Shown in pieces: positions 5,541 to 54,120 of a DNA stretch of 64,000 nt. Numbering within the stretch: the first letter of the stretch is position 1; each line of letters opens with the position of its first letter. Origin of the DNA: Pararhodobacter aggregans. Its GTDB lineage: Bacteria; Pseudomonadota; Alphaproteobacteria; Rhodobacterales; Rhodobacteraceae. The DNA is taken from contig NZ_QDDR01000009.1 of NCBI RefSeq assembly GCF_003075525.1, forward strand, positions 1-64,000. Direction: 5' to 3'. Under the pieces are notes generated by a model. It searched no databases and had not been told where the DNA came from. It was given only the letters and a program-made list of their open reading frames with translations. The position numbers and the translations under genes are program-made.

Positions 5541-9761
<4,221 letters not shown>

Positions 9762-9791: not shown

Positions 9792-9819
9792 GTAGGATGG
9801 GCAATATTGCCCATCCTAC
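9792..9819. repeat. 28-bp GTAGGATGGGCAAT palindrome, copy 1 (rpoB-rpoC gap)
   Basis: This is a perfect 28-bp inverted repeat with no spacer: arm GTAGGATGGGCAAT followed by its exact complement. It lies 13 nt past the rpoB stop and 31 nt before the rpoC start. Identical copies occur at 15472-15499 and, with one base changed, inside fdhD at 53870-53897. In the mRNA it could form a 3'-end-stabilising stem as REP elements do. Confidence 0.9.
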
Positions 9820-13969: not shown

Positions 13970-14114
13970 GCTCGGTATCACCTTTCATTCGTTCGCGGAT
14001 GCGCCTGCCGTCGGGCCTCGGCCGGGCTGCACCCCATGCGAATCAGAAGCGGAGGCTCCATTCCTGCGGTCCGTCCCAAAGGACCGCTCCCGAGCCTCGG
14101 CTGCTTCGGGAAGG

Positions 14115-15471: not shown

Positions 15472-15499
15472 GTAGGATGGGCAATATTGCCCATCCTAC
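15472..15499. repeat. 28-bp GTAGGATGGGCAAT palindrome, copy 2 (rplA-rplJ gap)
   Basis: This perfect 28-bp inverted repeat is identical to the rpoB-rpoC copy. It lies 6 nt past the rplA stop, upstream of the L10 leader. Again it sits just 3' of a stop codon within a polycistronic run. Confidence 0.9.
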
Positions 15500-50086: not shown

Positions 50087-50305
50087 ATGAGCGACACGGT
50101 CAAGGGCCCCGCGTCCTATTTCCCCTCGATCGAAAAGACCTATGGCAAGCCCGTCGACCATTGGCTGGCCATCGCCCGCGAGGGGTTGAAGGACCAGCCG
50201 CATATGGCGGTGGTCGGTGCGCTCAAGGCCAAGCACGGGCTGGGCCACGGCCATGCCAATGCCATCGTCGCCCATGCCAAGGCGCAAAAGGAGGGCAGCC
50301 AATGA
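50087..50305 (+). CDS. DUF4287-like small protein within the fds operon
   Basis: This 72-residue protein starts MSDTVKGPASYFPSIEKTYGKPVDHWLAIA and resembles DUF4287-type proteins (SYFPSIEKTYGKP...HM..V..LK..HGLGHGHANAIVAH). It has an excellent SD (GGAGGG, 7 nt) and lies between fdsB and fdsA on the same strand. Function is unknown. As part of this operon it may assist assembly or stability of the enzyme, which is inference from position. Its stop overlaps the next ORF's ATG (ATGA). Confidence 0.85.
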   Translation: MSDTVKGPASYFPSIEKTYGKPVDHWLAIAREGLKDQPHMAVVGALKAKHGLGHGHANAIVAHAKAQKEGSQ

Positions 50306-50406
50306 CCCCTCCCGACCCCAAAGACCTTCTGACCCTCCTGCGTGGCGAGCTGATCGCCCGCTGCCCCAAGCCAAAAGCCAAACCCCAAGGGGAGACCACG
50401 CCATGA
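50302..50406 (+). CDS. 34-residue coupled ORF between DUF4287-like gene and fdsA
   Basis: The ORF reads MTPPDPKDLLTLLRGELIAR and then a Lys/Pro tail ending CPKPKAKPQGETTP. A SD AAGGAGGG lies 8 nt upstream of the ATG. It overlaps the upstream stop (ATGA) and its own TGA overlaps the fdsA ATG (ATGA at 50403-50406). Such double coupling supports translation. It may be a real microprotein or simply a device that feeds ribosomes into fdsA. Confidence 0.65.
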   Translation: MTPPDPKDLLTLLRGELIARCPKPKAKPQGETTP

Positions 50407-53285
50407 AGGATTTCATCATTCCCTGGGACGATCGCGACTACGGCACCCCTGCCTCGCGGTCTGAAAAGCAGGTCACGCTGACCATTGATGGCTTCGAGGT
50501 GACGGTGCCCGAAGGCACCTCGATCATGCGCGCCGCCTCGCTGGCCGGGATCCAGATCCCCAAGCTCTGCGCCACCGACAGCGTCGAGGCTTTCGGCTCG
50601 TGCCGCCTGTGTCTGGTGCAGATCGACGGCCGCAACGGCACCCCCGCCTCCTGCACCACGCCGGTGGCCGAGGGGCTGACCGTCCACACCCAGAACGAGA
50701 CGCTGAAGCGGCTGCGCAAGGGGGTGATGGAGCTCTACATCTCGGACCACCCGCTGGACTGCCTGACCTGCGCCGCCAACGGCGATTGCGAATTGCAGGA
50801 CATGGCCGGGGCCGTGGGCCTGCGCGACGTGCGCTATGACGCGGTCGACACCCATTTCCGCCCGCGCCATAACGGCCATGCCAACCCGCAATACATGGCC
50901 AAGGACACGTCGAACCCCTATTTCGACTATGACCCGTCCAAATGCATCGTCTGCTCGCGCTGCGTGCGGGCCTGCGAAGAGGTGCAGGGCACCTTCGCGC
51001 TGACCATCCAGGGCCGGGGCTTTGACAGCCGCGTCTCGGCGGGCATGTCGGGCGACACCTTCCTGTCGTCGGACTGCGTGTCCTGCGGCGCCTGCGTGCA
51101 GGCCTGCCCCACCGCCACGCTGGTGGAAAAGTCGGTCGTGGAAATCGGCACGCCCGAACGCTCGGTCATCACCACTTGCGCCTATTGCGGCGTCGGCTGC
51201 TCGTTCAAGGCGGAACTGCGCGGCGATGAGCTGGTGCGCATGGTCCCCCACAAGGACGGCAAGGCCAACCGCGGCCACAGCTGCGTCAAGGGCCGCTTCG
51301 CCTGGGGCTATGCCACCCACAAGGAACGCATCCTCAACCCGATGATCCGCGACAAGATCACTGATCCCTGGCGCGAAGTCAGCTGGGACGAGGCGCTGGG
51401 CTTCGCCGCCAACCGCATGAAGGGCATCATCGCCGAACACGGTCGGCAGTCGGTCGGTGTCATCACCTCGAGCCGCTGCACCAACGAGGAAACCTACCTC
51501 GTGCAGAAGCTGACCCGCGCGGTGTTCCTGAACAACAACACCGATACCTGCGCCCGCGTCTGCCACTCGCCGACCGGCTACGGCCTGGGCCAGACCTATG
51601 GCACCTCGGCCGGGACGCAGAACTTCGACAGTGTCGAGCATTCCGACGTCATCATGGTGATCGGCGCCAACCCCAGCGCCGCGCACCCGGTCTTCGCCAG
51701 CCGGATGAAGAAACGCATCCGCCAGGGCGCCAAGCTGATCGTGGTCGATCCGCGCCGCACCGAAACGGTCGAGGCGGCGCATGCCAATGCGACCCATCAC
51801 CTGCCGCTGCGCCCGGGCACCAACGTGGCCGTGGTCACGGCGCTGGCGCATGTGATCGTGACCGAGGGCCTGATGAACGAGGCCTTCATCCGCGAGCGCT
51901 GCGACTGGGACGAATTCCAGGACTACGCCGAATTCGTCAGCCAGCCGCATCATGCGCCCGAAGCGGTCGAATCGCTGACCGGCGTCCCGGCCGAGACGGT
52001 GCGCGAGGCGGCGCGGCTCTATGCCACCGGCGGCAACGGCGCGATCTATTACGGGCTGGGCGTGACCGAGCACAGCCAGGGCTCGACCACCGTCATCGGC
52101 ATCGCCAACCTCGCCATGCTGACCGGCAACATCGGCCGTCCGGGCGTCGGCGTGAACCCGCTGCGAGGCCAGAACAACGTGCAGGGCTCGTGCGACATGG
52201 GGTCGTTCCCGCATGAACTGCCGGGCTATCGTCACGTCAAGAACGACGACGTGCGCGCGCTGTTCAAAGGGGCCTGGGGCGTCGACATCGACAACGAGCC
52301 GGGCCTGCGCATCCCCAACATGCTGGACGCGGCGGTCGAGGGCAGCTTCAAGGGCCTCTATTGCCAGGGCGAGGACATCCTGCAATCCGATCCCGACACC
52401 AAGCATGTCGCGGCGGGCCTCGCGGCGATGGATTGCGTCATCGTGCATGACCTCTTCCTGAACGAGACGGCGAATTACGCGCATGTCTTCCTGCCGGGCT
52501 CGACCTTCCTCGAAAAGAACGGGACCTTCACCAACGCCGAGCGCCGCATCAACCTGGTGCGCAAGGTGATGGCGCCGAAGAACGGCTACGAGGATTGGGA
52601 AGTCACCCAGATGCTGGCCAACGCGATGGGCGCCAACTGGAACTACGCCCATCCCAGCCAGATCATGGACGAGATCGCGCTGCTCACCCCCTCGTTCGCC
52701 GGGGTGAATTACGACATGCTCGAGGCCAAGAACTCGGTGCAATGGCCCTGCAACGAGAAGGCGCCCGAGGGCACGCCGACCATGCACGTCGACGGCTTCG
52801 TGCGCGGCAAGGGCAAGTTCATCCGCACCGAATACGTGGCGACGGATGAGAAGACCGGCCCGCGCTTCCCGCTGTTGCTGACCACCGGCCGGATCCTCAG
52901 CCAGTACAACGTCGGCGCCCAGACAAGGCGCACCGCGAACGTCGTCTGGCACGATCAGGACGTGCTGGAGATCCACCCCCACGACGCCGAGAACCGCGGC
53001 ATCCGGGACGGGGATTACGTGCGGCTCGCCTCGCGCTCGGGGGAAACCACGCTGCGCGCGACGATCACCGACAAGGTCTCGCCCGGGGTGGTCTACACCA
53101 CCTTCCACCACCCGGACACGCAGGCCAACGTCGTCACCACCGATTTCTCGGACTGGGCCACCAACTGCCCGGAATACAAGGTGACGGCGGTGCAGGTCTC
53201 GCCCTCGAACGGGCCCTCGCAATGGCAGGAAGACTACGCGGCCCAGGCCGAAATGGCCCGCCGCATCCTGCCGGCCGCCGAGTAA
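50403..53285 (+). CDS. fdsA: NAD-dependent formate dehydrogenase alpha subunit (Mo)
   Basis: The 960-residue catalytic subunit oxidises formate to CO2 at a bis-MGD molybdenum centre. The N-terminus has a NuoG-like [2Fe-2S] domain (CATDSVEAFGSCRLC...CTTP), then DCLTCAANGDCELQ, two [4Fe-4S] ferredoxin sites (CIVCSRCVRACEE, CVSCGACVQACP) and CAYCGVGCSF near the Mo domain. The likely Mo ligand is Cys387 in CARVCHSPTGYG, so it is a cysteine, not selenocysteine, enzyme. Residues about 930-960 end the MGD-binding domain. The 5' end is coupled to the 34-residue ORF. Confidence 0.96.
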   Translation: MKDFIIPWDDRDYGTPASRSEKQVTLTIDGFEVTVPEGTSIMRAASLAGIQIPKLCATDSVEAFGSCRLCLVQIDGRNGTPASCTTPVAEGLTVHTQNETLKRLRKGVMELYISDHPLDCLTCAANGDCELQDMAGAVGLRDVRYDAVDTHFRPRHNGHANPQYMAKDTSNPYFDYDPSKCIVCSRCVRACEEVQGTFALTIQGRGFDSRVSAGMSGDTFLSSDCVSCGACVQACPTATLVEKSVVEIGTPERSVITTCAYCGVGCSFKAELRGDELVRMVPHKDGKANRGHSCVKGRFAWGYATHKERILNPMIRDKITDPWREVSWDEALGFAANRMKGIIAEHGRQSVGVITSSRCTNEETYLVQKLTRAVFLNNNTDTCARVCHSPTGYGLGQTYGTSAGTQNFDSVEHSDVIMVIGANPSAAHPVFASRMKKRIRQGAKLIVVDPRRTETVEAAHANATHHLPLRPGTNVAVVTALAHVIVTEGLMNEAFIRERCDWDEFQDYAEFVSQPHHAPEAVESLTGVPAETVREAARLYATGGNGAIYYGLGVTEHSQGSTTVIGIANLAMLTGNIGRPGVGVNPLRGQNNVQGSCDMGSFPHELPGYRHVKNDDVRALFKGAWGVDIDNEPGLRIPNMLDAAVEGSFKGLYCQGEDILQSDPDTKHVAAGLAAMDCVIVHDLFLNETANYAHVFLPGSTFLEKNGTFTNAERRINLVRKVMAPKNGYEDWEVTQMLANAMGANWNYAHPSQIMDEIALLTPSFAGVNYDMLEAKNSVQWPCNEKAPEGTPTMHVDGFVRGKGKFIRTEYVATDEKTGPRFPLLLTTGRILSQYNVGAQTRRTANVVWHDQDVLEIHPHDAENRGIRDGDYVRLASRSGETTLRATITDKVSPGVVYTTFHHPDTQANVVTTDFSDWATNCPEYKVTAVQVSPSNGPSQWQEDYAAQAEMARRILPAAE

Positions 53286-53289
53286 GGCC

Positions 53290-54120
53290 ATGCTGGGTGC
53301 CCGCCCCCGTCCACGCCTGGCGTTCGGCACCTCCCCCCAGGGGGGGATCGTGCCGGGCGAGCGCGTCCTGCCCGAGGAGGTCGCCGTCGCGCTGACCTTC
53401 AACGGCTCGACCCAGGCGGTGATGATGGCGACACCCGATGACCTCGAGGATTTCGCCTATGGCTTCGCGCTGACCGAAGGGCTGGCGCGGCCCGACGAGA
53501 TCGAGAGCCTGGAGGTGGTCGAGACCCCGAAGGGCCTCGACGTGCAGCTCTGGGTGGCCGAGGCCGCCGAGGCCCGGCTCAAGGAACGCCGCCGGGTCAT
53601 GGCCGGGCCGGTGGGCTGCGGGCTGTGCGGGATCGACAGCCTGGAACAGGCGATGCGCGAGATGGCACCGCTGCCCCATGGCGGCTACCGGCTGACGCCG
53701 ACGCAGATCATGGCCGCCGTCGCCGCCCTGCCCGGACAGCAGGCGCTGCATGACCTGACCCGCTCGGCGCATTGCGCGGGGTTCTGGGACGGGACGCGGA
53801 TGGTTGCCGCGCGCGAGGATGTCGGGCGGCACAACGCGCTGGACAAGCTGGTCGGGGCGCTGGTCTCGGGTAGGATGGGCAATATTGCCCATCCTGCGAA
53901 GGGCGCCGTGGTGCTGACCTCGCGCGTGTCCATCGACCTCGTGCAGAAGGTGGCGGCGCTGGGGGCGCCGGTGCTGATCGCCGTTTCGTCCCCCACCGCC
54001 GATGCCGTGGATCTTGCCGACCAGCTCGGCCTTACCCTCATCGCCCAGGCCCGCCCCGAGAGGTTCGAGGCCTTTACCCACACCGACCGCATCGAGACGG
54101 AGCAATCCCATGTCCGCTGA
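53290..54120 (+). CDS. fdhD: Formate dehydrogenase sulfurtransferase FdhD (FdsC), with in-frame palindrome insertion
   Basis: FdhD sulfurates the bis-MGD cofactor before insertion in formate dehydrogenase. The 276-residue protein has the catalytic CGLCG near residues 110-114 and the conserved GRHNALDKLVG near 180-188. Right after this, residues 194-203 ([10 protein letters not shown]) are encoded by a near-exact copy of the 28-bp palindrome found in two ribosomal/polymerase gaps. The frame continues cleanly into VVLTSRVSIDLVQKVAALG. The element therefore replaces or extends a surface loop, apparently without breaking the gene. Its end overlaps fdsD by 11 nt. Confidence 0.94.
   Translation: MLGARPRPRLAFGTSPQGGIVPGERVLPEEVAVALTFNGSTQAVMMATPDDLEDFAYGFALTEGLARPDEIESLEVVETPKGLDVQLWVAEAAEARLKERRRVMAGPVGCGLCGIDSLEQAMREMAPLPHGGYRLTPTQIMAAVAALPGQQALHDLTRSAHCAGFWDGTRMVAAREDVGRHNALDKLVGALVSGRMGNIAHPAKGAVVLTSRVSIDLVQKVAALGAPVLIAVSSPTADAVDLADQLGLTLIAQARPERFEAFTHTDRIETEQSHVR
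53870..53897. repeat. 28-bp palindrome, copy 3, inside the fdhD coding sequence
   Basis: Arm GTAGGATGGGCAAT (53870-53883) is followed by its complement with one change (TGC instead of TAC at the end, base 53896). It is read in the only frame giving RMGNIAHP. The two intercistronic copies (9792-9819, 15472-15499) are perfect. Confidence 0.92.

What the first reader, a model, noticed from the sequence alone, without database searches (positions are those of the whole stretch)
53870..53897. Mobile-looking palindrome inserted in frame inside fdhD
A near-perfect 28-bp inverted repeat, otherwise found as two perfect copies in operon gaps 38-44 kb away, lies inside the fdhD frame and encodes [10 protein letters not shown] (residues about 194-203) between the conserved HNALDKLVG and VVLTSRVSIDLVQK segments. 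Of the three frames of the element only one contains a stop (TAG), and because it is palindromic both strands give the same choices, so it can enter coding regions without breaking them. This parallels the Rickettsia palindromic elements. One base differs from the intergenic copies (53896), which may be drift or selection on the protein.
Basis: partly seen in the sequence, partly recalled or inferred. Interest (0 to 1): 0.78.

Follow-up and report, generated by a model that had tools for sequence, protein, structure and literature searches.

The report
Transposase-linked palindrome inside the fdhD gene
A 28-letter DNA palindrome scattered through this bacterium's genome, and linked in related bacteria to a small transposase gene, sits readable as protein inside a loop of the formate-dehydrogenase helper FdhD; such in-gene repeats are a known kind, but a sister species offers a natural test of what keeps the copies identical.

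Summary
The palindrome has 43 copies (38 perfect) in this genome; the copy at 53870-53897 encodes FdhD residues 194-203. Of 29 aligned relatives only the sister G016 shares them. It is not a clean 28-bp insert (the loop is 12 nt longer than in G015 and G017) and it predates the G000/G016 split.

It is a REP-type (GTAG) element. In six related genomes a REP-associated tyrosine transposase (RAYT) is flanked by the palindrome, one copy encoding its C-terminus in the same frame as in fdhD. The cognate RAYT here lacks the catalytic His and Tyr. FdhD of three other species holds another REP family in this loop.

The most interesting result lies beside the finding: at 27 orthologous sites the copies are nearly perfect here (3 changes in 756 bp) but have drifted in G016 (80 changes), where most of this RAYT gene is missing, although flanks evolve equally fast (792 versus 771). 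This is one genome pair and shows no cause. Intragenic REPs are already described (PMC3733652), so this is a variant of a known kind.

The parts
53870..53897 (.). 28-bp palindrome inside fdhD (1 mismatch to consensus), encodes [10 protein letters not shown]
53290..54120 (+). fdhD, formate dehydrogenase accessory sulfurtransferase, 276 aa
   Evidence: TIGR00129 177 bits, cut-off 141; aligns to solved FdhD 4pde
50217..53285 (+). formate dehydrogenase alpha subunit, upstream neighbour of fdhD (start codon uncertain)
   Evidence: TIGR01591 948 bits, cut-off 666
9792..9819 (.). perfect copy in the rpoB-rpoC gap; L183, L190 and L236 have a perfect copy within 3 nt of the projected position
15472..15499 (.). 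perfect copy in the gap between rplA and rplJ, 6 nt after the rplA stop
5541..9761 (-). rpoC, downstream of the copy at 9792
   Evidence: TIGR02386
9833..13981 (-). rpoB, upstream of the copy at 9792
   Evidence: TIGR02013
15506..16204 (-). rplA, upstream of the copy at 15472
   Evidence: TIGR01169
14674..15348 (-). rplJ (start codon uncertain; the L10 model begins at residue 58), downstream of the copy at 15472
   Evidence: NF000955

Best explanation
The segment is a copy of a GTAG-type REP element, a non-autonomous palindrome that a REP-associated tyrosine transposase (RAYT) is expected to spread by cutting and rejoining single-stranded hairpin DNA. Shown: the dispersed copies, RAYT genes flanked by the palindrome in related genera, the in-frame copy in fdhD, and its sharing with the sister. 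Inferred: that RAYT activity put the copy into an ancestor's fdhD, and that it survived because the loop between the HNALDKLVG and VVLTSR segments tolerates extra residues, the palindrome lacks a stop in that frame, and its peptide (RMGNIAHP) is not strongly hydrophobic. Most other copies sit within 20 nt after stop codons, where the hairpin is probably transcribed as a 3'-end element. The copy in fdhD today is most likely a tolerated passenger with no special function.
For: 43 copies, 38 perfect. Of 38 intergenic copies here, 30 lie -5 to 20 nt from a gene 3' end; of 82 in other genomes, 66 do. Divergent spacers hold 3 of 43 and 1 of 86 copies. NF047646 REP_Tyr_transpos hits the ORF beside the L009 copy (128 bits, cut-off 80). 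RAYTs at least 54% identical to the Fuscovulum query occur in 10 of 20 genomes reached through palindrome loci; in 6 of these 10 the palindrome (0-2 mismatches) begins 67-74 nt before the start and again encodes the C-terminus. The fdhD segment is absent from 28 of 29 aligned relatives. The same loop holds another REP family in G009 and G013 and G005; that family flanks a second RAYT of this genome. All 8 accepted intragenic copies, in five kinds of gene, use the frame RMGNIAHP.
Against: The cognate RAYT here has Arg for the first His of the HUH motif and Asp at the Tyr115-equivalent, so no present activity is shown. Ten of the 20 sampled genomes show no RAYT of this type, among them the isolate Rhodobacter amnigenus HSP-20 with no match at all. 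No clean empty site was found, so the insertion event (target, duplication) is unseen; against G015 the net change is +12 nt in fdhD and 0 nt at L021. Unlike canonical GTAG REPs, GTAG here pairs with CTAC at the other end. Copies at the same positions in other genera look resident rather than mobile.
Confidence: 0.85

Rival explanations
1. The palindromes are now mainly a selected 3'-end RNA or DNA hairpin (mRNA stability, attenuation or protein binding), kept in place by purifying selection; mobility is past history. (Not exclusive of the best explanation, which concerns origin.)
For: RNA hairpin of -21.5 kcal/mol. Tight placement after stop codons. Copies at the same position in other genera at flank identities of 72-84% (L036/L216; W9792/L183, L190, L236). 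In G016 each stem G or C position has 0-2 changes in 27 copies, while positions 2, 27, 7, 22 and the centre vary.
Against: No copy has a T run of 4 or more within 12 nt (0 of 43), and copies lie in the rplA-rplJ and rpoB-rpoC gaps, so a strong terminator is unlikely. It does not explain copies inside fdhD, cobN and a dehydrogenase fusion, nor the link to RAYT. The loci were found by exact match, which biases that comparison.
Confidence: 0.35
2. The fdhD copy arose by recombination or gene conversion that replaced an older REP or loop sequence, not by RAYT-driven insertion.
For: The loop already carries other REPs in relatives; against G015 the alignments give +12 nt in fdhD, +12 at L036 and 0 at L021; at W9792, L015, L022 and L033 the G015 spacer holds a different GTAG-type hairpin.
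Against: The 12-nt flanks printed look unrelated by eye, so only the palindrome itself could guide conversion; longer flanks were not compared systematically.
Confidence: 0.3
3. The segment is ordinary ancestral FdhD coding sequence that happens to resemble the repeat.
For: None found beyond the open frame.
Against: 27 of 28 bases match a repeat with 38 perfect copies; 28 of 29 aligned FdhD relatives lack the residues.
Confidence: 0.01

Closest known systems
GTAG-tagged REPs and their RAYT transposases (REPtrons): PMC3733652 (abstract, sections 5 and 15 and passages read), PMC3686654 (passages), PMC2817692 (search listing only)
   Same: Short palindrome ending in GTAG, dispersed, next to gene 3' ends, often supplying the TAG stop, with RAYT genes flanked by the repeat; intragenic in-frame copies are described, and different REPs at about the same site of recB in two Xanthomonas species.
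   Different: Here GTAG is paired (symmetric GTAG...CTAC palindrome without orientation), and one copy encodes the C-terminus of the RAYT itself. The words Rhodobacter, Paracoccus and fdhD do not occur in the main text of PMC3733652.
Rickettsia palindromic elements (RPE), known here through PMC3733652 and recall; the original paper was not held
   Same: Palindromic repeats lying in frame inside genes.
   Different: PMC3733652 says the R. [quoted passage not shown] this one ends in GTAG, has a cognate RAYT and is mostly intergenic.
REPINs (PMC8049555, passages read)
   Same: RAYT-linked non-autonomous repeats forming hairpins; E. coli genomes with the RAYT hold more of them.
   Different: A REPIN is two inverted REPs with a spacer; here there is one 28-bp palindrome without a spacer.

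Membership tests
GTAG REP superfamily | 20-40 bp palindromic repeat, dispersed in many copies | tested here: met
   28 bp, 43 copies; exact palindrome
GTAG REP superfamily | GTAG tetranucleotide at one end | tested here: met
   GTAG begins the consensus on both strands
GTAG REP superfamily | the GTAG is unpaired (outside the stem) | tested here: not met
   in the predicted fold all but the central 4 bases pair, GTAG included; a rarer asymmetric relative, mostly GTAGGATGGGCGATTCGCCCATCC, has no TAC after it
GTAG REP superfamily | mostly intergenic, close to gene 3' ends | tested here: met
   30 of 38 intergenic copies here, 66 of 82 elsewhere
RAYT-associated repeat (REPtron) | repeat flanks a RAYT gene | tested here: met
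   both sides in 6 of 10 genomes with this RAYT type; one side only in this genome
RAYT-associated repeat (REPtron) | HUH and Tyr residues present in this genome's cognate RAYT | tested here: not met
   DRLH for DHLH and Asp for Tyr
RAYT-associated repeat (REPtron) | RAYT binds or cuts the repeat | not testable with these tools
   needs purified protein
REPIN | two inverted REPs separated by a spacer | tested here: not met
   single palindrome, no spacer
Rickettsia palindromic element | CGTC terminal tag (as given for R. conorii in PMC3733652) | tested here: not met
   ends are GTAG/CTAC
Intrinsic terminator | hairpin followed by a T run | tested here: not met
   0 of 43 copies have 4 or more T in a row within 12 nt on either side
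MITE | target-site duplication at a clean empty site | tested here: inconclusive
   5 of 37 judged sites lack the element in G016, but none aligns as a clean empty site

The most novel reading that the evidence does not exclude
The RAYT protein preserves its palindromes in place, at fixed genomic addresses, rather than merely adding new copies, and may do so without cleavage chemistry. This genome keeps a full-length RAYT ORF without its catalytic His and Tyr, and its copies are nearly perfect; the MAG HJF.31 (G286) also has Asp at the Tyr position and at least 12 exact copies; the sister G016 has lost most of the gene, and at the same addresses its copies have drifted, most of all in the T of GTAG, while the hairpin stem stays. 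That would make the protein a domesticated hairpin-binding factor with the palindromes as its sites.
Probability: 0.25. Interest if true: 0.8.

Novelty: new variant of a known kind. Interest (0 to 1): 0.55.

Why it matters
It adds a RAYT/REP family of Rhodobacteraceae whose palindrome is fully symmetric and overlaps its own transposase gene, and shows one enzyme loop (FdhD) holding different REP families in different species. More important, the G000/G016 pair makes an open question testable: whether bacterial REP populations persist by copying to new places, by selection on each copy, or by something that depends on the RAYT protein.

Tried and rejected
Rejected: the 'no transposase' reading. 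Pfam Y1_Tnp found nothing in this genome nor in G016 and G004, but this was a false negative of that model: NF047646 hits three places here. Rejected: the intragenic call at L032, because its recognisable domains begin at residue 236 or later while the element is at codons 196-205; it is left out of the intergenic counts too. Rejected: a strong intrinsic terminator. No structure prediction of FdhD was run: single-sequence models are described as often poor, and an alignment with relatives from the genome search was not among the inputs listed as allowed.

Limits of the counts. My gene calls are home-made (codon usage trained on 24 ORFs of this window) and were applied unchanged to other genera. 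The FdhD alignment has 30 rows from 31 matching genomes: G022 gave no locus and was left out, as was a second hit in G019; G005 is partial; 12 of the 29 relatives are only 28-31% identical. The 3-versus-80 comparison was chosen from G000 copies; choosing from all 22 G016 copies within 3 mismatches (21 mapped) gives 2 versus 35. Some of the 80 changes come from an indel that shifts an ungapped comparison (L008). Six of 43 sites (L003, L014, L022, L032, L034, L039) could not be judged in G016. The count of 12 of 83 changed conserved positions in the G000 RAYT is not by itself a sign of decay: an apparently intact RAYT (L308) changes 15 of 98 in the same kind of count, the other four 2 to 5.

Full report
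What is there. The palindrome at 53870-53897 is real and far beyond chance: 3 matches in the window against 0 in 100 shuffles, 43 copies at up to 3 mismatches in 5.08 Mb, 38 of them perfect, and none for the reversed control. The two other copies of the window lie in the rpoB-rpoC gap (9792) and between rplA and rplJ (15472); these genes were identified with NCBIfam models. The fdhD copy encodes [10 protein letters not shown], residues 194-203 of 276.

Is it an insertion? The FdhD search matched 31 of 40 genomes; 30 sequences (this one and 29 relatives, 12 of them only 28-31% identical) were aligned. Only the sister G016 has the segment, as GRMGKNAHPT. Loops in G015 and G017 are 18 residues, this one is 22, so the net gain is 12 nt, not 28. 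The insertion is therefore older than the G000/G016 split and not clean. In the sequence alignment to solved FdhD 4pde the extra residues fall at gaps in this stretch. Three further FdhD genes, of G009, G013 and G005, carry a different repeat there, GTAGGGTGCGTGC-NN-GCACGCAC: for G009 and G013 the repeat coordinates fall inside the gene (one mismatch in G013), for G005 it is read from the sequence. So 5 of the 9 FdhD genes at 69% identity or more carry one of two REP families in this loop; in G015, G017, G006 and G012 I recognise none, though the G006 loop could by eye be a decayed copy.

What kind of element. The palindrome begins with GTAG on both strands. RAYT-like ORFs appeared unexpectedly: in L009 (this genome), L220 and L237 the gene finder put a copy inside the C-terminus of such an ORF. 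NF047646, REP-associated tyrosine transposase, matches the L009 ORF with 128 bits and a Fuscovulum protein with 149 bits, cut-off 80; Pfam Y1_Tnp had missed it. Among 20 genomes reached through palindrome loci, 10 have a RAYT at least 54% identical to the Fuscovulum query (one of the ten is that genome itself). In six of these ten the palindrome (0-2 mismatches) begins 67-74 nt before the start and again at codon 151 or 152, where it encodes [10 protein letters not shown] (RRMGNTAHPT in L312) at the C-terminus. G290, G291 and G292 have more altered copies or only some of them; G299 gave no row in that scan. The other 10 of 20 genomes have only weaker RAYT matches or none; records titled MAG are among them, but so is the isolate Rhodobacter amnigenus HSP-20. 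A second RAYT here (C10:53185) is flanked by the second REP family, and a third is partial with a stop.

State of the cognate RAYT. In the alignment to TnpArep 4er8, the position of Tyr115 (Y115F is a catalytic mutant in PMC8266576, passage seen) corresponds to Asp in G000, and the first His of the HUH motif is Arg. Twelve of 83 positions invariant in five RAYTs of this type are changed; by the same kind of count the five themselves change 2 to 15, so the number alone shows no decay, only the two catalytic positions do. The ORF is otherwise open. In the MAG HJF.31 (G286) the Tyr position is also Asp. In G016 330 bp of the 531-bp ORF have no counterpart; 29 bp stand in their place. Its two other RAYTs, 47 and 49% identical to the query, have different flanking hairpins.

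Where the copies lie. With the home-made gene finder, copies here fall in convergent (14), same-direction (19) and divergent (3) spacers, 5 inside ORFs and 2 undecided; 86 copies in 80 loci of other records (3 of them from G016) give 30, 46, 1, 4 and 5. A gene 3' end lies -5 to 20 nt away for 30 of 38 intergenic copies here and 66 of 82 elsewhere; in at least 3 and 22 the TAG of the element is the stop codon. No copy here has a T run. Of the five ORFs here, L032 is probably a spurious N-terminal extension; the others are FdhD, CobN (codons 48-57), a carnitine dehydrogenase-thioesterase fusion (codons 323-332, before the thioesterase domain at 345) and the RAYT. Elsewhere the four are the CobN of Frigidibacter (L216, same codons, named by likeness to L036), an EamA transporter C-terminus (L181) and two RAYTs (L220, L237). 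All use the frame RMGNIAHP; with about five independent genes this is suggestive only.

The sister comparison. Of 43 sites, 37 could be judged in G016: the element is present at 32 (27, two more with small deletions, three more) and absent at 5. At the 27 pairs G000 differs from the consensus at 3 of 756 bases and G016 at 80. Flanks of 23 sites with G015 as outgroup show 792 changes on the G000 side and 771 on the G016 side in 21,735 columns, so the lineages evolve equally fast. Choosing sites from G016 instead gives 2 versus 35 at 21 of 22 copies. In G016 the changes concentrate at positions 2, 27, 7, 22 and the centre, while each stem G or C position has 0-2 changes. G004 has 24 copies at up to 3 mismatches; one perfect copy is listed (list truncated), and its best RAYT match is 48%. 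Copies also occur at the same place in other genera: W9792 in L183, L190 and L236 at 82-84% flank identity, L036 in L216 at 72%; these were found by exact match, so no rate can be taken from them.

Reading. The fdhD copy is best explained as an old REP copy, spread originally by a RAYT of this type and tolerated in a permissive loop. What keeps the copies uniform here is open: selection on a 3'-end hairpin, RAYT binding, or a recent loss of RAYT activity. Decay of REPs after RAYT loss has been proposed before (PMC3686654, passages), and E. coli genomes with RAYT hold more REPINs (PMC8049555, passages). The added value here is the comparison at identical addresses with a rate control; it is one pair of genomes and cannot show cause.

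Literature. Intragenic GTAG REPs, TAG stops supplied by REPs, and different REPs at about the same site of recB are described in PMC3733652 (abstract, sections 5 and 15, passages). A search for RAYT with Rhodobacteraceae or FdhD and one for Rhodobacter or Paracoccus with palindromic repeats listed no paper that by its title describes this family; only the best 12 of 27 and 15 of 1,310 hits were listed and seen, and subscription journals are mostly not held. What I say of Rickettsia elements comes from PMC3733652 and recall; the original paper was not held.

Noticed in passing
L036:3001-3028 (G000 C21:16858-16885) and L216:6432-6459: The same palindrome lies in frame at codons 48-57 of CobN in this genome and at the same codons of a like gene in Frigidibacter sp. 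SD6-1 (72% flank identity); G016 has it with 1 mismatch, and G015 aligns with 12 nt fewer there.
   Followed up: partly
L021:3001-3028: A perfect copy lies between the dehydrogenase and thioesterase domains of a carnitine dehydrogenase fusion, with no length difference to G015.
   Followed up: partly
L292, L295, L297, L299 (RAYT genes of G017, G012, G015, G016): These RAYT genes carry GTAGGGTGGG-type hairpins inside their own coding sequence, in frame (peptides such as VGFHPT...VGWNPT).
   Followed up: no
L015, L022, L033 and window 9792, against G015: At these four spacers G015 has a different GTAG-type hairpin in place of this palindrome, which suggests turnover of REP families at fixed addresses.
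   Followed up: partly
G000 contig ends: C3:189, C4:329980, C5:421, C19:231: Four of 43 copies lie within 500 bp of a contig end; whether this is more than chance was not tested. Chunks beside two of them (L018, L033) match the same places of G016.
   Followed up: no
CP059262.1 (L164 and others): A chromosome titled Exiguobacterium profundum carries many copies of this palindrome and a RAYT of this type; the title looks wrong for what is probably a Rhodobacteraceae MAG.
   Followed up: no
window 14000-14096 (-): Rfam finds the Rhodo-rpoB RNA just upstream of rpoB (62.9 bits).
   Followed up: no
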